NCBI RefSeq assembly: GCF_021278025.1
Contig: NZ_JAIBHJ010000010.1
Location: 1-53,420, forward strand
DNA from: Motilimonas sp. E26
Lineage (GTDB): Bacteria; Pseudomonadota; Gammaproteobacteria; Enterobacterales; CBDFNC01
DNA length: 53,420 nucleotides
Reading direction: 5' to 3'
In this document: positions 140 through 11,188 of the stretch, in pieces
Numbering within the stretch: the first letter of the stretch is position 1
How the letters are laid out: each line of letters begins with the position of its first letter
Position numbers and translations under genes: made by a program
The notes under the pieces: model-generated
Database searches by the model: none
What the model was told of the DNA's origin: nothing
The model's input: the letters and a program-made list of their open reading frames with translations, nothing else

Positions 140-759
140 TCAACTAAAACTGGCCATCTCGTTATAAGTTTTGAAGTATTCTGCTTCAGCCTTTTGTGGC
201 GATAGCCCTTGTTAAACTGGTGAGGCCTGTACCGATTAAATAACCGGTAATGTACCTGTTAATCGATTCAATACCCGCTGCAAATGACTGATAACCTGAC
301 ATTGGCATCCATTCGGTTTTAAAACTTCTTAAAACGTTCTGTGGGTTGCGCTGACACCTTTCGCGTCATACTTCGACCGCGATGATGTAGCTGTCCATTG
401 GCTTTTAATACCCGATAAAACGTCGATTCAGAGTCATAATACTCATTATTATCTAATAGCGCTGGCACGATTTGTGACGGTGGTAAACTGGCAAATTTAC
501 TCAAGTTACACACCTCAATAATCTTTGCTTGCTCGGCTTCTGTTAGCTTGTTCGCCGGTGTCGGACGGACCGCATCCGGCCGCTTATCGGCGGAGATACT
601 GCCATCGCGATACCAGCGCCGATAGGTACGTAAAGTGATCCCCGCTTCACGGCAAGCAACATTGAGCCGAGCGGCAGACTGATTTGCCTCTTGTATCCAT
701 GACACGTATTTTGTGCGCAGTGGGAATGAGGTTAGTCGTCTTCGCTGTCGCTCTCCCAA
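140..759 (-). pseudogene. IS3-family transposase OrfB, internally deleted and frameshifted
   Basis: The 5' part (759 down to 319) encodes 146 residues with the helix-turn-helix region of this OrfB type (ITLRTYRRWYRDG; then LPPSQIVPALLD and ESTFYRVLKANGQLHHRGR). Reading then jumps to the far C-terminus: RSFKTEWMP, SGYQSF, INRYITGY, NRYRPHQFNK, GLSPQKAEAEYF, ending ASFS-stop at 140. The DDE integrase core between them is missing; the junction lies near 320-340, where AGAACGTTTT and AGAAGTTTT sit side by side. Two further one-base losses split the C-terminal part (TTTT to TTT near 237, AAA to AA near 213). The 759 start is TTG and is probably not used: this frame would be entered by -1 frameshifting from OrfA. 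The family assignment rests on remembered motifs. Confidence 0.8.
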
Positions 760-1238
760 AGCGCATTTAACTTTTTTCGCAGCACCAAGATCGCCGCGGT
801 TTCAGCTAGCGCCTTTTCTTTTTCGCGTAGCTCGCGTTTTAACTGTTTTATTTCTTTCTTATCTGCCTGCCGCTGGCGTTTCACTTCAATTTCATGTTCG
901 CGAGAGCTCATAAAACCTCTAAGTGAATCAGCTTTCCAAGCTTTAACTTGGTCAACATAGAGCCCTTTTTCACGGCAATATTCACTTAATTCGGCTTCGT
1001 TTAAACTGGCAGTTTCAATGACCGAGGCCAGTTTAGCTTCAGCAGACCATTGATCAGATGTTGGTTTATTTCCGGGCACAGGACGACCTTGTTGTTTGGC
1101 TTTATCGCGCCAATTATACAAGGTTTGCAGGCCAATCCCTTCATTTCTAGCGACTTGTGCAACAGTCATGTTGAAGGGAGGTAATAATTTATTCAAAACC
1201 TGCTGTTTTCGTTCTTCAGTGTAGCGTGGCACAATCAA
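732..1238 (-). CDS. IS3-family transposase OrfA
   Basis: 168 residues, intact. An N-terminal helix-turn-helix of the HTH_Tnp_1 type (about 5-50, with VAQVARNEGIGLQTLYNWR) binds the element ends. A second helical region follows, then a basic coiled-coil zipper (about 115-155, KKEIKQLKRELREKEKALAE) of the kind used for transposase multimerisation. The C-terminus LRKKLNALW overlaps OrfB, and the A AAA AAG heptamer there is the classic place for frameshift synthesis of OrfAB. With OrfB destroyed, this protein could act at most as a repressor or competitor for related IS copies. Confidence 0.85.
   Translation of the reverse strand: MIVPRYTEERKQQVLNKLLPPFNMTVAQVARNEGIGLQTLYNWRDKAKQQGRPVPGNKPTSDQWSAEAKLASVIETASLNEAELSEYCREKGLYVDQVKAWKADSLRGFMSSREHEIEVKRQRQADKKEIKQLKRELREKEKALAETAAILVLRKKLNALWESDSEDD
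771..777 (-). promoter_or_regulatory. Programmed -1 frameshift heptamer
   Basis: The heptamer A AAA AAG lies in the OrfA frame as CGA AAA AAG. A one-base slip back gives GTT AAA TGC GCT TTG GGA GAG, which joins the OrfB frame without a stop (KK-VKCALGERQ). This is the standard IS3-family device for making the OrfAB transposase. The frames were checked by hand; slippage itself is inferred. Confidence 0.7.
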
Positions 1239-1263
1239 GCCTTAACCCCCAACTGGTTAAATT

Positions 1264-1838
1264 TTAAGTAGTGACAACTATCCTGCCAGAGGGGGCAACA
1301 GTAAGAGCCGTTCGAAACTCACTCGACAACCCATTTTCTGCATCTTCCAGAGTCGATTCAATGCTCCCCCTTAACCCCCCATACTTTTTGGAAGCTTTAA
1401 TATTGAATTCAGACAATAAGGCTAATAATTGATTCTTTGCTGCTGTTTTGTGCCTGACACTTAGCTCCCTCAGTCGCATGACGGATTGCAATTGTTGCTG
1501 ATCCATTGTTTTCCCTGAAATAAAGGCGATATCTGGTAGCGAGGACGCTTGAACAATGGCTAAAGCATCATTTTTGTCTGTTTTCTGATTTTGCCTCACT
1601 GAAGCGACTAATTTAGTGGAGATTAATCGAGCGTCATGCCCTAAGGATGCTGCAAGCTGCTTCCAGTAATTCGAAGTCCCACAAGCTTCAAATGTAACAG
1701 TTACTGTTCTGAATTTGCCAACTAAGAAGTAAACTCATTCGGTGTCATTTCTGTATTAGAACGCATTTTTTTGTTCGCATAAACGCAAACTTGAATCACT
1801 CTCTTGGCTAAATCTACACCAGCAACTGTCTTCATCAT
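1264..1838 (-). pseudogene. IS110-family transposase, 5' remnant
   Basis: An N-terminal fragment of an IS110-type (DEDD, RuvC-like) transposase. It starts MMKTVAGVDLAKRVIQV at 1838 and continues with VTFEACGTSNYWKQLA, then QNQKTDKNDALAIVQA, the acidic KTDxxDA signature. Three lesions are visible: a TGG-to-TAG stop at 1722-1724 inside FTSWLANS; a lost base near 1706 (expected SEPVTVTFE); and loss of the whole C-terminal Transposase_20 half, the coding match ending near 1296 at an 18-bp repeat. The longest open stretch left is 1264-1599. The element is dead. Confidence 0.8.
1278..1295. repeat. 18-bp direct repeat, copy 1, at the truncated end of the IS110 remnant
   Basis: CTATCCTGCCAGAGGGGG. 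An identical copy lies at 1907-1924. The two bracket the IS110 remnant, with 629 bp from start to start. It is too long for a normal target duplication, so it is more likely an element end or a recombination junction. Confidence 0.8.
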
Positions 1839-1906
1839 GTTGAACTTCAATTATTTTTCTACTAGCAATTAGAGGCTACGACTTATGAGGGGGGGAGTCC
1901 AATTAT

Positions 1907-1924
1907 CTATCCTGCCAGAGGGGG
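1907..1924. repeat. 18-bp direct repeat, copy 2, upstream of the IS110 remnant
   Basis: Second exact copy of CTATCCTGCCAGAGGGGG. It lies about 70 bp upstream of the remnant's start codon, where the non-coding left end of an IS110 element would be expected. A G-rich run (GAGGGGGGGAG) at about 1886-1896 precedes it. Confidence 0.8.
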
Positions 1925-2477
1925 AGGAGCTCTCAGAGGATAATTACCCTAGCAGGCTGGCGTTGTCTGTGAGCGAGCTAAAGTGAAAGCTTCAAGGTAC
2001 ATGTCCTACTCACACAAAATGAGTATAAGATCACGATTGCTTTTAGGCGTCAAATAAAATCGAGTGATTACTTAAAAAACGCTCTCGATCCTGCCCTAGG
2101 AACGGTTTTTTCTAACAATCTATTCTTAATAGATATTCTTCATGGTTTTGATTCTCATTAATATTTATTGCTCCTATATTTAATTATAAATCGATAAAAA
2201 TATTGCCGTTTTTTATAATGTGATTCAAATCAATTGATGGTTATTTATAAAAACCAATTAAATTAATCTGTTATGTGATTGGTGTTTTGTTTTTTGTAGT
2301 TGTATTTTTTAATAGGTTTTTTTTATAAAACTTTGCTCTTTAATATTGTGATTGTTATTAATAAGTTACATTTTTATTCATTTTAAGATGAGATGGAGAT
2401 CTTACTTTGATTACTTTCAAGGTGTACTAATGCTTTTCTAATGCTAAATTGAAGTAACTGAAGCAATTCAGTGTCGC
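1925..2477. other. Gene-free, AT-rich stretch before the riboswitch
   Basis: No convincing reading frame on either strand. A possible weak terminator lies at 2086-2111: CGATCCT and AGGAACG can pair with one mismatch around a GCCCT loop, followed by GTTTTTT. From about 2110 the DNA is very AT-rich. The promoter for the riboswitch transcript should lie in about 2390-2470, but no clear -35/-10 pair stands out. Confidence 0.5.
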
Positions 2478-2565
2478 GTTGAAAAAGGCAGCACATTCGA
2501 AAGGGTGTTACGCAAAGCTACTGGTCTAAGGGAAACTATGATGGCAGAGCTACCAACGGAGTTAG
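2478..2565 (+). promoter_or_regulatory. Cyclic-di-GMP-I riboswitch (GEMM) aptamer
   Basis: The conserved GEMM-I landmarks occur in the right order. CACATTC-GAAA-GGGTG forms the first hairpin with its GAAA tetraloop at 2499-2502. The invariant ACGCAAAGC is at 2510-2518. CTGGTCTAAGG, the tetraloop-receptor side, is at 2521-2531. GGCAG-AGCTACC, the second-helix end, is at about 2543-2553. The overall layout matches the Vibrio cholerae Vc2 aptamer as remembered. The element lies 73 bases upstream of a secreted protein gene on the same strand, a usual position for this riboswitch class. A covariance search (Rfam RF01051) was not possible here. Confidence 0.85.
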
Positions 2566-2637
2566 TTTTATACAACCTCCAATTTTTTCCGCGAGAAAAC
2601 TAATTGTTAATTATTAATTAATTATTGAGGTAATTGT
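2562..2637 (+). promoter_or_regulatory. Candidate riboswitch expression platform with anti-Shine-Dalgarno
   Basis: Just past the aptamer, TTAGTTTT (2562-2569) can pair with AAAACTAA (2596-2603). The loop between them contains ACCTCCAA (2575-2582), which can pair, with one bulged C, with TTGAGGT (2625-2631), the ribosome-binding site of the gene at 2638. The two pairings are topologically exclusive, or would form a pseudoknot, so ligand binding could shift the balance and control translation. No intrinsic terminator with a U-run is seen. The pairings are read directly; the mechanism is inferred. Confidence 0.45.
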
Positions 2638-4191
2638 ATGAAAACTATTTCGTTCAAAAAAACTTTATGTAATATAGCAATATTAAGCGCTATGTCCCTT
2701 CCTGTATTTAATTCTTCAGCATTTGAGTTATGTGAACCGGCACGGTCTGATAACCCTCCTGTGATAGCAGCCTCTCAAGGTGAAAGTCTATCATTAAGAG
2801 GCTTTGTTAATTGGAGTAATACTGAAGAATTTACTGTAAGCGTAGAGTGGACAGGTAGTGGTGTTCAGTATCTTTCTAACAGCCATTCTGAAGATGTAAC
2901 CTTCTCCGGTTTCATCCCTGCTGTCTACGAGTTAACTAAAACTGTAACGAGTAACCTTGGTAATGTATCAGTCATTCCATATACCATAGAAGTCATTCAT
3001 AAAGAATTGCCTCAAGTTGAGTTCTTTGAAAACAGCACTCCAACTAAATTAGTAACTGATTATGGTATGCATCCAGATGATAATATTGATGACTCGGTAG
3101 CGTTTAAAGCAATGTTAGAAAACCTAAATGATGGTGATGTAATTGAATTTCCTAGTGGAACATTTATTTTTGAAAAAACGGTTAGAATATTAGACATAGC
3201 TAAGAATATTACCATTCAAGGTAATACTGGAACGGTAATTAAAAAAACAATCGCGCCAGGTAGTAATCCTGATCTTAGAGATTCACTAATATTTATTGAT
3301 AATAGTGAAGGTTTAATTATACAGAATTTAAGCTTCGTTGGTGTGTTTAATTCAATAGGAGAAGCACCTAGATGGACTCATGATGGTTTATATATAGGTA
3401 GTGCAAATGATGCAATAATTAGGCAAAACACTTTTTTTGGTTTTGGTGATGCATGTTTGAGGGTGAATACTTCACCTTACCATGAGATAGGTGGAATTTA
3501 TTCTAATAACGTGCTGGTTAGTAATAATGTATTTGAACAGTGTATGCAAATATCTACCACCATTAAGATTGATAAATTTGGCGGTGTTAATAACCTTGAA
3601 TTTTCTGATAATACTTTTAAAAATATGCGTGGACCGCTTAAGTTGGCAACAAGGCAACCAACATTCGGCTTGAAAGTTATTCGGAATAAATTTATAAATG
3701 GCTATACACATGCAATGGATATTCTTGGTTACAGTGATGTCGAAGTAAAAAATAACCTTATTAAAGATTATCCAAATGGATACTTTCTTGATATACGCCC
3801 TAATGATGAAATAGAAAAAACCTTAGAAATAAAAAATATTGATGTTAGCGAAAATGTAATTCTTAACACTGGTAGAGGATTGAGGATTCAACCACTTGAT
3901 ATAGATGATGAACTTATTCCGATGTCAAATGTGAAAGTTGAACGTAATTATTTTGAAAATACACGAATTGCCGCCAGTGCAACAACTCGATCTGTTACTT
4001 TGGCTAACTATTACCTTGATATATTTACTGGGCTAAAAATAAATGACAATATATACTGGGAGCCTAACTATCAAAGGGCGGATATGTTTTTAGATATGGA
4101 ACGTATAGATAGAGCTGCTGATATATGGGAAGCTAAAAATAATGTAAACCATCAGCTTGACATTAATTTGTTACGAGTTCCAAAAGTTTAA
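2638..4191 (+). CDS. Secreted right-handed parallel beta-helix protein (pectate-lyase-like)
   Basis: 517 residues. Residues 1-28 form a typical Sec signal peptide (basic MKTISFKK, hydrophobic core, SSA-F cleavage region). After a probable beta-sandwich N-domain, DYGMHPDDNIDDSVAFKAML (about 142-161) and GDVIEFPSGTF match the entry motif of the pectate-lyase-3/glycosyl-hydrolase-28 fold. Beta-helix coils follow, with recurring IxxNxF and NN turns. Such proteins bind, cleave or epimerise acidic polysaccharides, but no catalytic set can be named, so the substrate is unknown. The start has a good site (TTGAGGT, 6-base spacing), which the riboswitch leader may mask. The gene is markedly AT-rich compared with the core genes, suggesting transfer. 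Type II export is possible. Confidence 0.75.
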   Translation: MKTISFKKTLCNIAILSAMSLPVFNSSAFELCEPARSDNPPVIAASQGESLSLRGFVNWSNTEEFTVSVEWTGSGVQYLSNSHSEDVTFSGFIPAVYELTKTVTSNLGNVSVIPYTIEVIHKELPQVEFFENSTPTKLVTDYGMHPDDNIDDSVAFKAMLENLNDGDVIEFPSGTFIFEKTVRILDIAKNITIQGNTGTVIKKTIAPGSNPDLRDSLIFIDNSEGLIIQNLSFVGVFNSIGEAPRWTHDGLYIGSANDAIIRQNTFFGFGDACLRVNTSPYHEIGGIYSNNVLVSNNVFEQCMQISTTIKIDKFGGVNNLEFSDNTFKNMRGPLKLATRQPTFGLKVIRNKFINGYTHAMDILGYSDVEVKNNLIKDYPNGYFLDIRPNDEIEKTLEIKNIDVSENVILNTGRGLRIQPLDIDDELIPMSNVKVERNYFENTRIAASATTRSVTLANYYLDIFTGLKINDNIYWEPNYQRADMFLDMERIDRAADIWEAKNNVNHQLDINLLRVPKV

Positions 4192-4214
4192 GTCGACTAT
4201 CCTTTCTTTACTAT

Positions 4215-4245
4215 AAAACCTGCCGCATGGATGCGGCCATAAAAT
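4215..4245. terminator. Hairpin between convergent genes
   Basis: GCCGCA (4222-4227), loop TGGA, TGCGGC (4232-4237) is a compact GC-rich stem in AT-rich surroundings, between the stops of the 2638 and 4270 genes. AAAACC lies before it and CATAAAATTT after it, so the T-run is weak in both directions. It may serve as a shared terminator. Confidence 0.45.
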
Positions 4246-4269
4246 TTACTTACTTTCTAGCTTTAGATA

Positions 4270-5607
4270 TTACCCTTTAATATTGCAAATCACTTGACGA
4301 GTTTTACCATTTTTTGTTTTGGGGATTATATCGACTAATTCAATTTCGATCTCTAGAGATGCTCCTAAATCTTTTTTTGCGCTATTTATTAATTTGGTTT
4401 TCTGAAAACTGTCAAACTTATTTTCATCTACAACAAGTAGTAACTTTATCTTCGTTTGGCTATCTTGCAAAAACTGTGCCGCAATAATTCCAGGAATGGC
4501 TTTAGTTATTTGGCTTAAATGGTAAACCTTTTGACCATCTTCTGCGATTAAGTAGTCTCCTCTGCGTCCTTTAATGTGGTCAATAATAGGGTATACTCTG
4601 CCACATGGACAATTTTTTTTATTCGACAAAGCGACATAATCACCTGTCCTATAACGAATTAATGGGTGAATTCTATTGTTGAAGTTAGTCCCCACAATTT
4701 CATGATAACCGTTGTCCTCTTCGAGTAACTCAACATGGGAATAGTCAGTTAATATGTGGTAGTTATTATGTTCACAGCTGGCTATCGCCGCAACTCTCTC
4801 GAATAAACCATACCAATCAAAAACTGTGCATTTAAAATGCTTTTCAATAAGTAACTTATGCTCTAGTGATAAAGATTCAGACGATGTAACAATAGATTTT
4901 AATTTTCCTTGATAATAAGTGTCGTTCATTTCGAGGTATTTAGCCAAAGTAACAACTGATGATGGGGCTGCTTGAATAATATCAACTTTGTTATCTTCCA
5001 TCGCTTTTATATACATTGGAATTACTTCTTTTGTCATATGAAAAGCAGAAAAAAATATCATGTTATTAAAGTAGGAAAAGCGCCAGTAAGGCGGCTTCTT
5101 TTGTTGCATTGGAACGATTTTATCTCCTCTAAGCCAAGCAATTTTATCGCCCTTTTTGAATCCTGCCCATTGAAGGTGACGGTCGGTAAATGCTTTTTCA
5201 GCTCTAACTGAAGATATGTCTTGATAAATAGTAAGAGACTTACCTGTTGTGCCGCTAGTTTGACCTGATATTTTTATTTCTTTCGACTTGCAGTTTATAA
5301 ACTGATTAGTATGCTTCCTAACATCTTCTTTACTTGTATAGGAAAAATCACTGATATTTAAGTTTTTTTTGTTTTTATACTTCGAATAGTACTCTGTATT
5401 ATTTATTGCATTGTTAATTACACTTTCTAATTTATTTTTACTATATTCTTCTAATGCTTTTGAGTCCTTTTCGTGTGAAATAAGTTGCTGCATGAGAGCA
5501 TTGCTTGATTTAGTTGCTCGTAATTTTCTTTTTATTAGTTCGTGGCAGCTTAACAATAAATTTTGTATGAATATTGGTGAATATTTATACGCAACACTAT
5601 TTAACAT
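4270..5607 (-). CDS. CapK/phenylacetate-CoA-ligase-like adenylate-forming enzyme
   Basis: 445 residues, no signal peptide. The AMP-binding P-loop SGTTGKSLTIYQD is at about 116-128. WYGLFE (about 266), HPLIRYRTGDYV (about 312-323) and GRRGDYLIAEDGQ (about 346) are the motifs that place ATP and the catalytic residues. CPCGR in between fits a small metal-binding hairpin seen in this branch. The CapK-like branch is often found inside capsule or exopolysaccharide loci, with undefined acyl substrates. The gene is convergent to the beta-helix gene and divergent from manC. Its start has GAGG upstream. Codon use is AT-rich like the beta-helix gene, so both may have arrived together. Confidence 0.75.
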   Translation of the reverse strand: MLNSVAYKYSPIFIQNLLLSCHELIKRKLRATKSSNALMQQLISHEKDSKALEEYSKNKLESVINNAINNTEYYSKYKNKKNLNISDFSYTSKEDVRKHTNQFINCKSKEIKISGQTSGTTGKSLTIYQDISSVRAEKAFTDRHLQWAGFKKGDKIAWLRGDKIVPMQQKKPPYWRFSYFNNMIFFSAFHMTKEVIPMYIKAMEDNKVDIIQAAPSSVVTLAKYLEMNDTYYQGKLKSIVTSSESLSLEHKLLIEKHFKCTVFDWYGLFERVAAIASCEHNNYHILTDYSHVELLEEDNGYHEIVGTNFNNRIHPLIRYRTGDYVALSNKKNCPCGRVYPIIDHIKGRRGDYLIAEDGQKVYHLSQITKAIPGIIAAQFLQDSQTKIKLLLVVDENKFDSFQKTKLINSAKKDLGASLEIEIELVDIIPKTKNGKTRQVICNIKG

Positions 5608-6174
5608 TCTGGTGTAACCTCGGTCATAAATTTTTAAACGTTAAGTTTGTTGTGCACATGTTAAATGAGGTGCAGAGAGGCATCAAAAGCACCGCTTGAG
5701 ATAGCTTTATCTGTGAAAAATAGGACAAATATCACAAATTTACTCTAACTAAAGCTTAAAAACAAGCATTTGTAGGCCTTCTTACAGATGAACTATTCAG
5801 TAAAATCAATCACATATGGGCTTAGTGTTGATATAGTGTATTAGTCTGGTTTTAGTAGGTTTTTATTATTATTTTACCTGTTTTAGTCGTTTATCGAGTG
5901 AATATTGCTGTCATTTTTTTAAAAATTAGAGTTGGTTTTTGTTTTTATTTAATGGTTTTTGTTGACTTCGTAGCTGATAAGACTGAAATTTAGTTAATAC
6001 TTTTCCTATTCGTCGACTAACTTGAGCTAAATAGAACTTTATTCTGGTATTCTTTACTAAACTTTTTCCTAAGTTGAATGGGTTAGCATGAGCACATTTA
6101 AAACCACATGTGTTCCATTCTCCCCCATACTAGTCTTTAATTACCATAATCATCCAACGGATCTGGAGTGTGTT
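5608..6174. other. Divergent intergenic region, CapK-like gene and manC
   Basis: AT-rich, about 570 bp, with no gene seen beyond an unlikely upstream extension of manC. It must hold promoters for both flanking genes. TTGAGC at about 6022 with TATTCT about 20 bases on is the only faint manC candidate. No JUMPstart/ops GGCGGTAG motif for RfaH was found, although the neighbours are of polysaccharide type. Confidence 0.4.
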
Positions 6175-7608
6175 ATGTTACTTCCTGTGATCATGGCTGG
6201 CGGCTCTGGAACTCGCTTGTGGCCGCTTTCTCGTAAGCTACATCCTAAGCAATTCCTATCGTTATACGGTCAGGCGACAATGTTACAAGCTACAGCTAGG
6301 CGGCTGGTTTCTATTCAACATCAACCACCGTTGATCATCTGTAACGAAGAGCATCGTTTTACGGTGGCAGAGCAAATGCGCCAAACGGATTTGTCTCATA
6401 GTGGTATTTTGTTAGAGCCAGAAGCGAAAAATACCGCGCCGGCGTTGGCGCTGGCGGCGTTTCAAGCCTTGGCTCAGCATCCCGATGAGGATCCCTTATT
6501 GTTAGTGTTAGCGGCGGATCACGTGGTGAAAGACGAGCAAGCTTTTTGCAATGCTGTAAATGTGGCAATGGCGGCGGCGCTGGCGGATCATTTAGTGACG
6601 TTTGGCATAGTGCCGGATCATCCTGAAACCGGTTATGGCTATATAAAACGAGGTAAGGCGGTGCAATTTCCCGATGCCACGGGTGATATTTTTCAAGTGG
6701 CTCAGTTTGTTGAAAAGCCTGATTTAGCGACGGCAAAAGAATATGTCAGCACTGGCCATTATTCGTGGAATAGCGGCATCTTTTTGTTTAAAGCCAGTGT
6801 GTTTTTGGCTGAGTTGAAACAACACAACCCTGATATTTACCACGCTTGCCAAGCGGCCACACGTGAGTTTAATCCCGATTTAGACTTTATTCGCATTGAT
6901 GCAGCGGCCTTTGCTACTAGCCCTGAAGACTCTATCGATTATGCGGTGATGGAAAAAACCAGCCAAGCCGTGGTGATCCCAATGGATTGCGGTTGGAGTG
7001 ACGTGGGCGGTTGGTCGGCGCTGTGGGAAGTGTCTGACAAGGACGAGCAGGGCAATGTGTTTCGTGGTGATGTGTTAGATATCGACTCACATAACTCGTA
7101 TGTTTATGCCCAGGATACGCTGGTTGCCAGCATTGGCTTAAAAGACATCATAGTGGTGAAGACCAAAGATGCGGTGTTGGTGGCCGATAAGTCACGGGTG
7201 CAGGAAGTGAAGCACTTGGTTGAGCAACTAAAAGCGGCGCAGCGCAGCGAGGTGTTACATCACCGTGATGTGCAGCGTCCTTGGGGTAAGTATGATTCTA
7301 TCGATACCGGCAATCGGTTTCAGGTTAAGCATATTACGGTGAAACCAGGCGCTAAATTATCGGTACAAATGCATCATCATCGCGCCGAGCATTGGGTGGT
7401 GGTGTCGGGAACGGCCAAGGTAACCAACGGTGAGCGCACCTTTTTACTCAGTGAAAATGAGTCTACTTATATTCCTATTGGCACTACTCACGCTCTTGAA
7501 AACCCTGGTAAGGTGCCTCTTGAGTTAATTGAAGTGCAGTCAGGCTCGTATTTAGGTGAAGACGACATAGTACGTTTTGAAGATAGATACGGTAGGACTG
7601 AATCATGA
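6175..7608 (+). CDS. manC: Mannose-1-phosphate guanylyltransferase / mannose-6-phosphate isomerase
   Basis: 477 residues from this start. The bifunctional enzyme makes mannose-6-phosphate from fructose-6-phosphate and GDP-mannose from mannose-1-phosphate plus GTP, in the cytoplasm. The N-terminal nucleotidyltransferase has [12 protein letters not shown] at 9-20. EKP at about 181 and the [10 protein letters not shown] region at about 271 complete it. The C-terminal cupin/isomerase domain has RPWGKY at about 354 and [15 protein letters not shown] at about 401. I chose ATG 6175 because GGAG lies six bases upstream and the protein then begins at the family's usual point. An in-frame ATG at 6088 would add 29 residues with no family likeness. 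The gene overlaps manB by four bases (ATGA), so the two are translationally coupled. Confidence 0.9.
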
Positions 7609-9020
7609 GTGTGGCGAATATCATTAAGAACAGCGGCATCGCTTTTGGTACTAGCGGGGCGCGCGGGTTGGTGGTGGATTTTACTCCCGAGGTGTGCGCA
7701 GCATTTACCTTGGCTTTTATTGAGATAATGAGAGAACGCTTTCGTTTTTCACGAATCGCTATTGCTGTTGATAATCGCCCGAGCAGCCCTGAAATGGCAC
7801 AGGCTTGTATTGCTGGCGTTCGAGCTGCAGGATTAGAGGTGGATTTTTATGGCGTGCTGCCAACGCCAGCGCTGGCGGTAACTTCAATGGCCGATGGCGT
7901 ACCTGCGATTATGGTAACGGGCAGTCATATTCCTTTTGATCGCAATGGTTTAAAGTTTTATCGTCCTGATGGTGAAATCACTAAGATAGACGAGCTGGCA
8001 ATTTTAAGTGCGCAAAGTGAGCTGGCAGCGCTGGATTTAAGTGGCTTGCCACAAGCTTCGGCTCGTGCCGCTGATGCTTATATGGCGCGCTATCTTGATA
8101 TTTTCCCCACTGATTTATTAGCTGGTAAACGCATTGGTATTTATGAGCATTCTAGCTCTGGTCGTGATCTTTATGGCGATTTGTTTACACAGTTTGGCGC
8201 AGAGGTGATTAGCCTTGGCCGCAGTGACAGCTTTGTGCCCATTGATACCGAAGCGGTGGGCTTGGCTGACATAGAACAAGCGCAAGATTGGCAGCGTGAA
8301 TTTGAGTTAGATGCGCTGTTTTCTACCGACGGTGATGGCGATAGGCCGCTGTTATCTGATGAAACGGGCACTTATTTACGCGGTGATATTTTATGTTTAC
8401 TGGCCGCGCAGTATTTAAAAATTGATGCGTTAGCGGTGCCGGTAAGTTGTAATTCTGCCATCGAAGCCTGTGGCGAGTTTAAGTATGTAGCGCGTACGCA
8501 AATTGGCTCACCTTATGTGATTGCAGAGTTTATATTGTTGCAAAGTCAGTTTGGCCGAATTGCGGGTTTTGAAGCCAATGGCGGTTTTTTATTGGGCTCG
8601 GACATTGAGGTGAATAGCGCTGCGCTGAGTGCGTTGCCAACGCGCGATGCGGTGTTACCTGTGTTGGCGGTGCTGGCAATGGCTGAGAAAGGGGGAATTT
8701 CAGATTTAGTGGAGCAGTTGCCAGAGATTTATACCGCGAGTGACCGTATTCAAAACTTCCCCCGAGAAAAAAGTTTGGCGATTATTGAGCGAGGATTGGC
8801 CGAGCCAAAGTCGCTGTTAGCTAGTTTAGGTCTAGGCGAGTTTGATGCCGAGAGTGTTGATACCACCGATGGCCTGCGCATGACATTGAGCAATGGTGAA
8901 GTGGTGCATTTGCGTCCTTCGGGTAACGCGCCCGAGCTGCGTTGTTATGCCGAGGCGAGTTCATCTGTTCGCGCGATGCAGTTGGTGATACAAAGTTTAG
9001 GCGCGCTTAATCAGGCTTGA
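7605..9020 (+). CDS. manB: Phosphomannomutase
   Basis: 471 residues of the alpha-D-phosphohexomutase family, converting mannose-6-phosphate to mannose-1-phosphate for ManC. The catalytic serine loop is TGSHIP (Ser107; many relatives have TASHNP). The metal loop DGDGDRP starts at 242. The sugar loop region is GFEANGGF, and the phosphate-binding loop near the end is [16 protein letters not shown]. It forms an operon with manC through an ATGA overlap. The Ile-Pro ending of the serine loop and the short overall length fit the CpsG-like subgroup used in polysaccharide loci. Phosphoglucomutase activity cannot be excluded from sequence. Confidence 0.88.
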
Positions 9021-9045
9021 TGAATCGATCCATGACTGGGGAATC

Positions 9046-9345
9046 TTACAGGTGAGTAACACGCTTTTGTGGGAGATATTTATATCGCGAATGAAGAGGG
9101 CGCTGTTTTTCGCGGAATGAATTCCGCTCCCACGTGGGAGTAACGTGCTTTTGTTGGGACATATCGCTCATCATATGGGCGCTGTTTTTCGCGGAATGAA
9201 TTCCGCTCCTACGTGTGGGGAACACGCTTTTTGTTGGGGGCATATCGTTCAACAGGTGGGCGCTGTTTTTCGCGGAATAAATTCCGCTCCTACGTGGGGG
9301 TAACACGCTTTTGTAGGAGCAGAATTTATTCTGCGAAGCATGCTT
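9046..9345. repeat. Tandem array of about 80-bp units built on REP palindromes
   Basis: Three units start about 79 and 81 bp apart. Each contains GGGCGCTGTTTTTCGCGGAA followed by the palindrome core GGAATnAATTCC and GCTCCTACGTG. Minus-oriented REP palindromes are at 9109-9133, 9188-9212 and 9269-9293. A final plus-oriented copy, beginning GTAGGAGCAGAATTTATTC, is at 9312-9336. The spacers (TAACACGCTTTTGT, CATATCG) are repeated too. The array fills the gap between manB and the beta-CASP gene and could act as a transcript-end or mRNA-stability structure. The same palindrome occurs at 13.96, 14.0, 14.5-14.7, 25.0 and 43.1 kb. Confidence 0.9.
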
Positions 9346-9370
9346 TGATACATAGATATATGGAGATTGA

Positions 9371-10756
9371 ATGGATATAAAACATTGGGGCGCGGTTGAT
9401 GGTGTCACAGGCTCTTGTCATCAGTTGATACTAAATGAACATAACAGCATTTTAATTGATTGCGGTTTGTTTCAAGGGGCTGAAACAGCCGGTAAAGCAG
9501 GCGCTGAGTCGTTGGCTATTGAGTTTGACCTCTCAACAGTTAAAGCCCTTGTTGTTACCCATTGCCATATTGATCACGTTGGCCGCATTCCATATTTATT
9601 AGCCGCTGGCTTTAATGGCCCCATTTATGCTACCCAAGCTACGGTGGCGATGTTGCCGATGATTTTGCGCGATGCCCTTAAGCTTGGTGTCACACAAGAT
9701 CAGCGTTTAATCGATGCTTGTATTCGCAAGCTGAAAAGCCAGATGATTGCGGTGGACTATAAAGTTTGGCAACGTTTACCGGTTGATGGTTTGGCTAAGG
9801 TGAAGTTTAAGCCAGCTGGGCATATTTTAGGCTCGGCCTATTTAGAGTTTGATTGTGGTAAAGGGAAGCGCGTGGTGTTCTCCGGTGATTTAGGTGCGCC
9901 TTACACGCCATTGCTCGCCGCACCGAAAAGTCCTTATCAAGCCGATGTATTAGTAATTGAAAGTACCTATGGCGATCATTGCCATCAAGGACGTAAAGCG
10001 CGCTCTGCTTTATTGAAAACCACCATTGAAAAAGCAGTGGCAGATAACGGTGTGGTGTTGATCCCTGCTTTTAGTATTGGTCGCACTCAAGAGCTGTTAT
10101 ATGAGCTTGAGTCTATCGCTTATGCTGAATCGAAAAAGAACCCCGCGGCCATGTGGGCCAATTTAGAGGTGATTATCGACTCGCCAATGGCGGCAGGCTT
10201 TACGGATTTTTATTGTGAGTTTAGCGAGCTGTGGGATGCCGAAGCGCGCCGGAAAACCCAATCTGGTCGTCATCCACTCGACTTTGAAACGTTATATACA
10301 GTTAGTAGCCATAAAGAGCACATCCAAGTGCTCAATTATCTTGCCAAACGCAATAAGCCTGCGGTGGTGATTGCTGCCAGTGGCATGTGTAGCGGTGGTC
10401 GTATCGTGAGTTATTTAGAGCAGTTTTTACCCGATGAAAAAGCCGATGTGTTGTTTGTCGGTTATCAAGCCCGTGGCAGTTTAGGGCGTGATATTCAACA
10501 ATATGGTCCAACGGGCGGTTACGTATTTATTGACGATAAACGCATTGATATTAAAGCTGGCGTACACACTTTAAGTGGTTATTCAGCCCACGCCGATCAA
10601 AAAGATTTGCTGAACTTTGTGAAACGGATGCGCAAGCCGCCAAAGCTAATCAAAATTGTGCATGGTGACGAAGAGGCGAAAGCAGAGCTTGCACGTTTGT
10701 ATCGTGATTTACTGCCTGAGTGTGATGTGGTGATTGCTGGTTATGGCCTTGAGTGA
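9371..10756 (+). CDS. MBL-fold / beta-CASP ribonuclease-like protein
   Basis: 461 residues. The metallo-beta-lactamase fold carries TxHxHxDH as THCHIDHVGR, with His64, His66, Asp68 and His69 as metal ligands. FSGDLG at about 174 is the later Asp motif. ESTYGDHCH begins the beta-CASP part, and IPAFSIGRTQELLYEL, ASGMCSGGRI and HTLSGYSAHADQ supply its motifs. The family includes CPSF73-like and RNase J-like exo/endonucleases acting on RNA. This bacterial stand-alone type is usually called RNA-processing exonuclease, with no proven target here. GGAG five bases before ATG fixes the start. It stands alone between the REP array and a terminator. Confidence 0.85.
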   Translation: MDIKHWGAVDGVTGSCHQLILNEHNSILIDCGLFQGAETAGKAGAESLAIEFDLSTVKALVVTHCHIDHVGRIPYLLAAGFNGPIYATQATVAMLPMILRDALKLGVTQDQRLIDACIRKLKSQMIAVDYKVWQRLPVDGLAKVKFKPAGHILGSAYLEFDCGKGKRVVFSGDLGAPYTPLLAAPKSPYQADVLVIESTYGDHCHQGRKARSALLKTTIEKAVADNGVVLIPAFSIGRTQELLYELESIAYAESKKNPAAMWANLEVIIDSPMAAGFTDFYCEFSELWDAEARRKTQSGRHPLDFETLYTVSSHKEHIQVLNYLAKRNKPAVVIAASGMCSGGRIVSYLEQFLPDEKADVLFVGYQARGSLGRDIQQYGPTGGYVFIDDKRIDIKAGVHTLSGYSAHADQKDLLNFVKRMRKPPKLIKIVHGDEEAKAELARLYRDLLPECDVVIAGYGLE

Positions 10757-10779
10757 TACAAGTAGCTAGCCGAACATAA

Positions 10780-10807
10780 TGCGATTGAGCGCAAAGGCTC
10801 AATCGCA
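10780..10807. terminator. Bidirectional hairpin between convergent genes
   Basis: TGCGATTGAGC (10780-10790), loop GCAAAG, GCTCAATCGCA (10797-10807) is a perfect 11-bp stem between the stops of the beta-CASP gene and the small lipoprotein gene. The T-runs are weak on both sides. Its position and strength support shared transcript ends. Confidence 0.7.
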
Positions 10808-10813
10808 GCATCA

Positions 10814-11188
10814 TTATTCTTCTTCGTTAGCGTCTTCCAATAACCATTGGGCTAGCTCGGTTTTCTTTTGTTTGATCACGTCATTCACTTGCTGCTCAAG
10901 ATCTTCAGCGTTGATGTCCTGTACTGCGGCCAGTGGCTCACCAATGGTTTGCTCAACCACGCCGTCAATATGCTCAAGGGCAGCTTGCTTGCCTTCTTCA
11001 ATTGAGTTGACGCCTAGCTCTTTTTTCGCTTCGAGTAATTCGTCAACGTTAATGCCTGTACTTTCTTCTAATAAGCTTTTACTCGCCGCTTTGGCTTCTT
11101 TTTTTGTTTCTTCATACGCTTCTGAGATTGGCCCACATCCCGCTAATAAGGTGAAAGAAAAGGCAGCTATGATAGGTAATGCTTTCAT
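10814..11188 (-). CDS. Small lipoprotein, acidic and helical
   Basis: 124 residues. The signal peptide ends in the lipobox LAGC (Cys18), followed by G-P, not Asp, so outer-membrane sorting is expected. The rest is charged, Glu/Lys/Ala-rich and likely mostly helical (SEAYEETKKEAKAASKSLLEE, then two further helical blocks). No family recognised. The start has AGAAGGACC about six bases upstream. A single-gene unit, convergent with the beta-CASP gene. Confidence 0.7.
   Translation of the reverse strand: MKALPIIAAFSFTLLAGCGPISEAYEETKKEAKAASKSLLEESTGINVDELLEAKKELGVNSIEEGKQAALEHIDGVVEQTIGEPLAAVQDINAEDLEQQVNDVIKQKKTELAQWLLEDANEEE

What the first reader, a model, noticed from the sequence alone, without database searches (positions are those of the whole stretch)
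2478..2637. Cyclic-di-GMP-I riboswitch controlling a secreted beta-helix protein
The GEMM-I landmarks (GAAA tetraloop, ACGCAAAGC, GGTCTAAGG, GGCAG-CTACC) are plain in the sequence. Downstream, ACCTCCAA can pair with the ribosome-binding site TTGAGGT, and TTAGTTTT with AAAACTAA, so a translational switch can be drawn with no terminator. Linking this second messenger directly to a single pectate-lyase-like protein points to matrix remodelling or adhesion during the motile/sessile change.
Basis: partly seen in the sequence, partly recalled or inferred. Interest (0 to 1): 0.72.

Follow-up and report, generated by a model that had tools for sequence, protein, structure and literature searches.

The report
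c-di-GMP riboswitch before matrix-lyase gene
A marine bacterium carries an RNA sensor for the signal molecule c-di-GMP directly in front of a gene for a secreted protein related to the enzyme that cholera bacteria use to cut their own biofilm matrix, so the signal may switch matrix digestion at the level of translation.

Summary
Window 2477-2557 scores 64.1 bits against Rfam RF01051 (threshold 35) and is the only match to that family found in its genome, a Motilimonas relative. The gene starts 80 bases downstream. Its product is a homologue of Vibrio RbmB, the lyase that cuts biofilm polysaccharide: 122.6 bits to the RbmB crystal sequence, 29% identity to V. coralliilyticus RbmB, best predicted-fold match RbmB. 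Both lie in a low-GC variable stretch upstream of manC.

The leader holds a strong helix (-21.7 kcal/mol; 1 of 1000 shuffles as good) covering ribosome-binding site, start codon and first codons; no plus-strand terminator was seen. A competing helix uses ligand-site bases. My best reading is an OFF switch: c-di-GMP blocks translation, and falling c-di-GMP releases the lyase for dispersal. The sign is inferred; equilibrium folding gives no switch at full length and my test did not recover published signs.

The riboswitch class is known. The RbmB-type target is new to my searches: 0 of 17 other homologous loci carried the element.

The parts
2477..2557 (+). c-di-GMP-I (GEMM-I) aptamer
   Evidence: RF01051 64.1 bits, gathering 35, model 1-87
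2487..2487 (+). G equivalent to ligand-contact G20 of Vc2; A2514 and C2553 are equivalent to A47 and C92
   Evidence: column assignment by me from the alignment; the contacts are named in PMC4744006 passages
2477..2558 (+). candidate P1 helix closing the aptamer: 2477-2481 with 2554-2558, five pairs
   Evidence: complementarity in sequence; present in folds
2474..2594 (+). competing helix P1': 2474-2478 with 2590-2594 and 2481-2487 with 2583-2589; it takes the A-run and G2487 of the ligand site
   Evidence: unconstrained minimum-energy fold at transcript ends 2612-2640; duplex 2458-2487 x 2581-2612 -16.4 kcal/mol, 1 of 1000 shuffles as good
2555..2579 (+). sequestering strand (contains the anti-ribosome-binding-site 2575-2579)
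   Evidence: pairs with 2627-2654
2627..2654 (+). sequestered start region: ribosome-binding site 2627-2631, ATG 2638-2640 and the codons up to 2654
2638..4191 (+). secreted RbmB-like polysaccharide lyase homologue, 517 aa; beta-helix domain about 133-445, extra N-terminal part about 30-130
   Evidence: Pfam Beta_helix 34.2 and Pect-lyase_RHGA_epim 31.7 bits, both over cut-off; 9ozd 122.6 bits; Foldseek best match RbmB; signal peptide judged by eye

Best explanation
A class I c-di-GMP riboswitch controls translation of an RbmB-like extracellular lyase that cuts the cell's own exopolysaccharide. Shown by computation: the aptamer, the RbmB homology, and a helix (2555-2579 with 2627-2654) far beyond chance that covers ribosome-binding site, start codon and first codons. 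Inferred: the sign, OFF. With c-di-GMP bound, aptamer and P1 hold 2477-2487, helix P1' cannot form fully, and the sequestering strand directly beside P1 captures the start region. With c-di-GMP low, 2583-2594 invades the aptamer to form P1', which encloses the sequestering strand while the RNA is being made and leaves a time window for ribosomes. The lyase would then appear as c-di-GMP falls and help cells leave the biofilm. Enzyme activity, substrate and timing are inferred too.
For: RF01051 64.1 bits. Gene 80 bases downstream on the same strand. RbmB homology by sequence and by fold (TM by target 0.76-0.86 for the seven RbmB chains, 0.55-0.59 by query). Sequestering duplex 1 of 1000 against shuffles; 2559-2660 z -3.62, 1 of 500; second strongest of 53 scored leaders. 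P1' duplex 1 of 1000 and P1' probability 0.88-0.90 without ligand at ends 2600-2636; at end 2640 ligand moves the sequestering helix from 0.11 to 0.68 (5' end 2455, K = 1000). Direct-path barrier to the sequestered fold 9.7-10.5 kcal/mol from the bound form, 11.5-12.6 from P1'. Precedent from passages of PMC6366702: C. difficile ZmpI, which releases adhesins, has a class I riboswitch and is repressed by c-di-GMP. RbmB is needed for dispersal (PMC7768729, abstract and passages). The genome has 51 GGDEF matches, 50 over the cut-off.
Against: At full length the sequestering helix is about 0.99 with or without ligand, so switching must be kinetic; with a 5' end at 2400 ligand makes no difference at end 2640 (0.28 and 0.28). 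Even with ligand, the P1' pair probed keeps probability 0.36-0.43 at ends 2600-2636. The whole of 2472-2645 folds no better than shuffles. The ligand-shift test gave changes within 0.04 for 10 of 11 other leaders, including ones whose sign is published, so it has no power. Vc1, a class I element on a secreted protein, is an ON switch (PMC4744006 passages). The barrier difference is small. No comparative leader exists: 0 of 17 homologous loci have the element. Identity to RbmB is only 26-29%.
Confidence: 0.55

Rival explanations
1. ON switch: c-di-GMP turns the lyase on together with matrix synthesis, and the enzyme trims growing matrix. Bound aptamer and P1 would favour a hairpin such as 2562-2569 with 2596-2603 that keeps the sequestering strand from the start region.
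For: That hairpin is in the minimum-energy fold of nascent RNA with aptamer and P1 fixed (ends 2612, 2625). Vc1 works as an ON switch (PMC4744006 passages). In G002 the element at the same site precedes an RTX protein.
Against: The hairpin has probability at most 0.02 in the ensembles, and the only ligand shift computed for this leader goes towards sequestration (end 2640, 5' end 2455).
Confidence: 0.25
2. The leader is closed by default and the aptamer no longer switches it; translation needs another factor or is simply low.
For: Sequestration about 0.99 with or without ligand at full length. A review says only 11 of the 16 c-di-GMP riboswitches of C. difficile 630 are functional (PMC6366702 passage).
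Against: The aptamer scores well above threshold with the contact bases kept, and P1' excludes the ligand site, an arrangement with 1 of 1000 shuffles as good.
Confidence: 0.12
3. The riboswitch is real but the product is not an enzyme: a beta-helix that binds matrix polysaccharide or acts as an adhesin.
For: Only 26-29% identity to RbmB; extra N-terminal part absent from the short RbmB-like proteins and related to parts of 639-750 aa open frames in G263; PfbA, a surface adhesin, is among the weaker fold matches.
Against: RbmB is the best match by sequence and fold, and stretches shared with RbmB are kept: W246, FGDACLR 269-275, LKLATR 334-339, YSDV. Which residues are catalytic was in no text I saw.
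Confidence: 0.15
4. Control is at the level of RNA (Rho-dependent termination or mRNA decay) rather than translation.
For: Not excluded; V. cholerae class I elements do not act by termination but their mechanism was called unclear (PMC4744006 and PMC6366702 passages).
Against: No + strand terminator-like site; a helix over the start codon far beyond shuffles.
Confidence: 0.1

Closest known systems
c-di-GMP-I (GEMM-I) riboswitches, RF01051; Vc1 (gbpA) and Vc2 (tfoY) of V. cholerae
   Same: Same aptamer family with contact bases kept; like Vc1 it precedes a gene for a secreted protein.
   Different: The target is RbmB-like. A clear sequestering helix over the start codon is present here, whereas the Vc1 paper sees no anti-Shine-Dalgarno sequence there (PMC4744006 passages).
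RbmB of V. cholerae and V. coralliilyticus (PDB 9ozd, 9ozl)
   Same: Homologous beta-helix domain.
   Different: Extra N-terminal part; lies beside manC, not beside rbmA; no c-di-GMP-I element was found in the 17 other homologous loci examined, RbmB loci of Vibrio included.
ZmpI (PPEP-1) class I riboswitch of C. difficile
   Same: A class I element on an enzyme that undoes adhesion, repressed by c-di-GMP (PMC6366702 passages); a parallel for the logic proposed here.
   Different: Protease, not polysaccharide lyase; that review describes the functional class I switches there as acting by transcription termination.
c-di-GMP-I elements before alginate lyases (L010 in G081, L092 in G078)
   Same: Same riboswitch class before a polysaccharide lyase (PF05426 99.3 and 93.2 bits).
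   Different: Another lyase family; seen in passing, not tested further.

Membership tests
c-di-GMP-I riboswitch (RF01051) | Covariance score over Rfam gathering score | tested here: met
   64.1 bits against 35, full model
c-di-GMP-I riboswitch (RF01051) | Contact bases G20, A47, C92 and GAAA tetraloop | tested here: met
   G2487, A2514, C2553, GAAA 2499-2502 by alignment; contact names from PMC4744006 passages, column assignment mine
c-di-GMP-I riboswitch (RF01051) | Binds c-di-GMP | not testable with these tools
   needs in-line probing or calorimetry
Translational riboswitch | Structure that can hide the ribosome-binding site, beyond chance, without a terminator | tested here: met
Translational riboswitch | Ligand-dependent change in access to the start region | tested here: inconclusive
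   no change at full length; a change only at transcript end 2640 with one of two 5' ends; the test does not recover published signs
RbmB polysaccharide lyase | Sequence homology over the beta-helix | tested here: met
   122.6 bits, E 1.7e-34, residues 139-445; 29% over 304 aa
RbmB polysaccharide lyase | Fold | tested here: met
   seven RbmB chains are the top seven Foldseek matches; the model is confident only for about 133-445
RbmB polysaccharide lyase | Lies in a vps/rbm cluster with rbmA | tested here: not met
   neighbours are a CoA-ligase-like gene and manC; an RbmA homologue found no match in the genome, a search without a positive control
RbmB polysaccharide lyase | Cuts an exopolysaccharide by elimination | not testable with these tools
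   needs protein and substrate; I therefore call it RbmB-like, not RbmB
RbmB polysaccharide lyase | Secreted | tested here: inconclusive
   signal-peptide-like N-terminus by eye only

The most novel reading that the evidence does not exclude
A polysaccharide cassette that is exchanged between related bacteria carries its own dispersal timer: an RbmB-like lyase for that polysaccharide, translated only when c-di-GMP falls because a class I riboswitch traps the start codon, while a sister species' cassette at the same site puts a c-di-GMP-I element before an RTX protein with a secretion system. The output of c-di-GMP would then be swapped together with the matrix type.
Probability: 0.3. Interest if true: 0.68.

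Novelty: new member of a known kind. Interest (0 to 1): 0.5.

Why it matters
A single RNA leader with a visible translational design links the messenger directly to an RbmB-like matrix enzyme, so whether c-di-GMP opposes or accompanies matrix digestion becomes testable with a standard reporter. In the sister species G002 another c-di-GMP-I element lies at the same chromosomal site before a different secreted gene, which suggests that riboswitch control may travel with exopolysaccharide loci.

Tried and rejected
Simple equilibrium switching was rejected: the full-length leader is about 0.99 sequestered with or without ligand. Calling the sign by folding was rejected: of 13 leaders named, L040 failed the motif search; of the 11 analysed besides the window's, 10 stayed within 0.04 and L031 moved by -0.14 to +0.03, although the set holds a gbpA-type (L095) and four tfoY-type leaders (L018, L024, L026, L033; target names by eye and recall). 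A terminator mechanism: no + strand site. A shared platform with G002's element: its leader folds no better than shuffles (z 0.94 and 0.14). In one search the columns with P1' enforced used pairs shifted by one base and are not used; only the unconstrained folds are. One search read the downstream genes of minus-strand matches on the wrong strand; one search replaces it. One search picks the longest ORF within 900 bases mechanically and misses the gene seen by eye in the four tfoY-type loci. One search left out L108 and re-chose start codons by ribosome-binding-site strength, wrongly for some (L018, L024). Pfam on the 67 downstream ORFs shows only 25 of 66 families, so other beta-helix targets cannot be excluded from that list; only the RbmB-like profile was searched in all 67. 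The scan with the protein alone found no relatives; the alignment-based one found 14 loci. The fold of residues 1-132 is not claimed.

Full report
WHAT IS THERE. cmscan of the window gives one Rfam match at gathering score: c-di-GMP-I, RF01051, 2477-2557 on the plus strand, 64.1 bits against 35, E 2.6e-10, whole model. It is the only RF01051 match in the 4.6 Mb genome. The alignment keeps the bases equivalent to G20, A47 and C92 of Vc2 (G2487, A2514, C2553) and the GAAA tetraloop; the contacts are named in passages of PMC4744006, the column assignment is mine.

ORGANISM AND SETTING. The window is the first 53,420 bases of contig C2. The same-genus genome G003 has contigs of 588,483 and 146,923 bases, the lengths of two records of Motilimonas pumila PLHSC7-2, with homologous beta-helix genes at the same places; so the window is very probably from a Motilimonas species. 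The 1-kb windows from 1501 to 6000 have GC 0.31-0.35; those from 6001 to 11,000 have 0.46-0.49. In a comparison of window 1-25,000 with a 20-kb piece of sister species G002, the first match begins at 6112 (manC), 93% identical over 9.7 kb. The aptamer, its gene and the CoA-ligase-like gene (below that library's cut-offs) thus lie in a low-GC stretch that G002 lacks at this place. G002 has there, before manC, genes that look like polysaccharide synthesis genes, its own c-di-GMP-I element (53.2 bits), an RTX protein (PF00353) and genes that look like an ABC transporter and secretion adaptor (those without a Pfam call are named by eye). A search for that RTX protein in the window's genome found nothing, without a positive control. 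Transposase-like fragments fill 319-1599 and the contig ends at base 1, so what lies further left is unknown.

THE TARGET. The 517-aa product has a signal-peptide-like start (by eye), Pfam Beta_helix and Pect-lyase_RHGA_epim above cut-off, and as best PDB sequence match 9ozd, 'Polysaccharide lyase', 122.6 bits, E 1.7e-34, residues 139-445. A profile of seven family members, the window's included, scores 311.3 bits against that chain. Foldseek names the entries: crystal structures of V. cholerae RbmB, free and bound to Vibrio polysaccharide; RbmB chains fill the top seven places, TM by target 0.76-0.86, by query 0.55-0.59. The V. coralliilyticus homologue is 29% identical over 304 aa. Homologue L044 lies beside an RbmA homologue (166.2 bits). 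RbmB is a shown polysaccharide lyase that disrupts biofilms (PMC11637428: abstract, introduction and passages seen) and is needed for dispersal (PMC7768729: abstract and passages). The window protein differs by an extra N-terminal part without a Pfam match. The AlphaFold model (mean pLDDT 68.6) is confident only for about 133-445. A paralogue in the same genome (contig C12, 1048 aa) adds a Polysacc_lyase domain and lies about 1.6 kb from a WecG-type glycosyltransferase gene; in L046, named Pseudoalteromonas, a short homologue lies directly beside such a gene. The likely substrate is therefore the cell's own exopolysaccharide (inference).

THE LEADER. No + strand terminator-like site lies in 1600-4400. 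Stretch 2559-2660 folds better than shuffles (-20.0 kcal/mol, z -3.62, 1 of 500) and 2554-2584 pairs with 2618-2662 at -21.7 kcal/mol (shuffle mean -8.5, 1 of 1000). The whole of 2472-2645, aptamer included, does not stand out (z -0.67, 45 of 200). The helix holds the ribosome-binding site, AUG and the codons up to 2654. Of the 69 c-di-GMP-I leaders, 53 could be scored for such a helix (12 had no ORF by the rule, 3 too short a leader, 1 was left out); the window's is second, z -4.03, after L094 with -5.26. A second helix, P1', pairs 2474-2478 with 2590-2594 and 2481-2487 with 2583-2589; as the duplex 2458-2487 x 2581-2612 it too has 1 of 1000 shuffles as good. It uses the A-run and G2487 of the ligand site. 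P1 (2477-2481 with 2554-2558) ends where the sequestering helix can begin, so these two can coexist; P1' and the sequestering helix cannot be nested together.

SIGN OF CONTROL. In nascent RNA from 2455, P1' has probability 0.88-0.90 without ligand at ends 2600-2636; with ligand (K = 1000) the same pair keeps 0.37-0.43. At end 2640 ligand raises the sequestering helix from 0.11 to 0.68. From 2643 on it is 0.94-0.99 with or without ligand. With a 5' end at 2400, P1' is 0.66-0.71 at ends 2600-2625 and ligand makes no difference at 2640 (0.28 and 0.28). Direct-path barriers to the sequestered fold are 11.5-12.6 kcal/mol from P1' and 9.7-10.5 from the bound form, a small difference. An equivalent test on 11 other leaders gave shifts within 0.04 for 10 of them, so the method does not recover published signs. 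A review says V. cholerae's two class I riboswitches respond in opposing directions (PMC6366702 passages). I hold OFF more likely than ON because P1' blocks the ligand site and because an enzyme that digests matrix fits low c-di-GMP; the same review reports that the adhesin-releasing enzyme ZmpI of C. difficile has a class I riboswitch and is repressed by c-di-GMP. All steps from binding to translation to dispersal are inferred.

HOW COMMON. RF01051 was found in 47 of 99 related genomes, 69 matches listed, and in 160 of 394 genomes of the order; both searches used stricter filters that lose weak matches. Of the 69, 67 had a downstream ORF by a mechanical rule, and 1 of 67, the window's own, matched the RbmB-like profile. 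Pfam on the 67 lists, among the 25 of 66 families shown, GH18 (4), LPMO_10 (3), Alginate_lyase (2) and RTX repeats (2), so secreted carbohydrate-active proteins are a usual kind of target. Conversely, of 17 distinct other homologous loci (8; 9 more, where 5 of 14 loci repeat), 0 had RF01051 within the flanks held, about 0.46 to 5 kb upstream. The protein matched in 8 of 394 genomes of the order, its own included; two matches are marginal and one genome matches only the N-terminal part.

IN PRINT. Searches of the held library found 0 papers with 'c-di-GMP-I riboswitch' and 'pectate lyase', 0 with 'GEMM-I', 'riboswitch' and 'beta-helix', 0 with 'c-di-GMP riboswitch' and 'polysaccharide lyase'. 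Ten hold 'rbmB' and 'riboswitch' and four hold 'c-di-GMP', 'riboswitch' and 'alginate lyase'; of these I saw the listings only. A genome survey of Motilimonas (PMC13182010; word search and two passages seen) holds no 'riboswitch', 'c-di-GMP' or 'rbmB' in its main text. The library lacks most subscription journals, so this is weak evidence of novelty.

VERDICT. A real riboswitch, a clear translational leader, and a more interesting target than first stated. The class is known and secreted carbohydrate-active targets are usual for it, so this is a new member of a known kind.

Noticed in passing
L041 5107-5185 (G002, same genus): The c-di-GMP-I element before the RTX protein departs from consensus: by eye, the G-C/C-G pair beside the ligand site reads C-G/C-G (GCCAAA with ACGGAAA), a compensatory-looking change; 53.2 bits.
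   Followed up: no
L010 and L092 (G081, G078): c-di-GMP-I elements lie before two Alginate_lyase (PF05426) genes.
   Followed up: partly
window 1501-6111: Low-GC stretch upstream of manC that is replaced by other genes in G002; both versions contain a c-di-GMP-I element.
   Followed up: partly
L042 1392-4538 (own genome, contig C12): A 1048-aa paralogue of the target with a proline/threonine-rich linker, beta-helix and a C-terminal Polysacc_lyase domain (PF14099, 74.5 bits) near a WecG-type gene; G003 has relatives of the same build.
   Followed up: partly
window 319-1599: Fragments of transposase-like genes of different families (HTH_Tnp_1, DEDD_Tnp_IS110, HTH_32 below cut-off) at the contig edge.
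   Followed up: no
L094 and L035 leaders (G076, G057): Two c-di-GMP-I leaders before similar-looking secreted proteins without a clear family also have a sequestering helix (z -5.26 and -2.27); a possible covariation test set.
   Followed up: no
window 2457-2472: A perfect six-pair hairpin (ACTGAA GCAA TTCAGT) just upstream of the aptamer; it appears in the folds and competes with the outer part of P1'.
   Followed up: no
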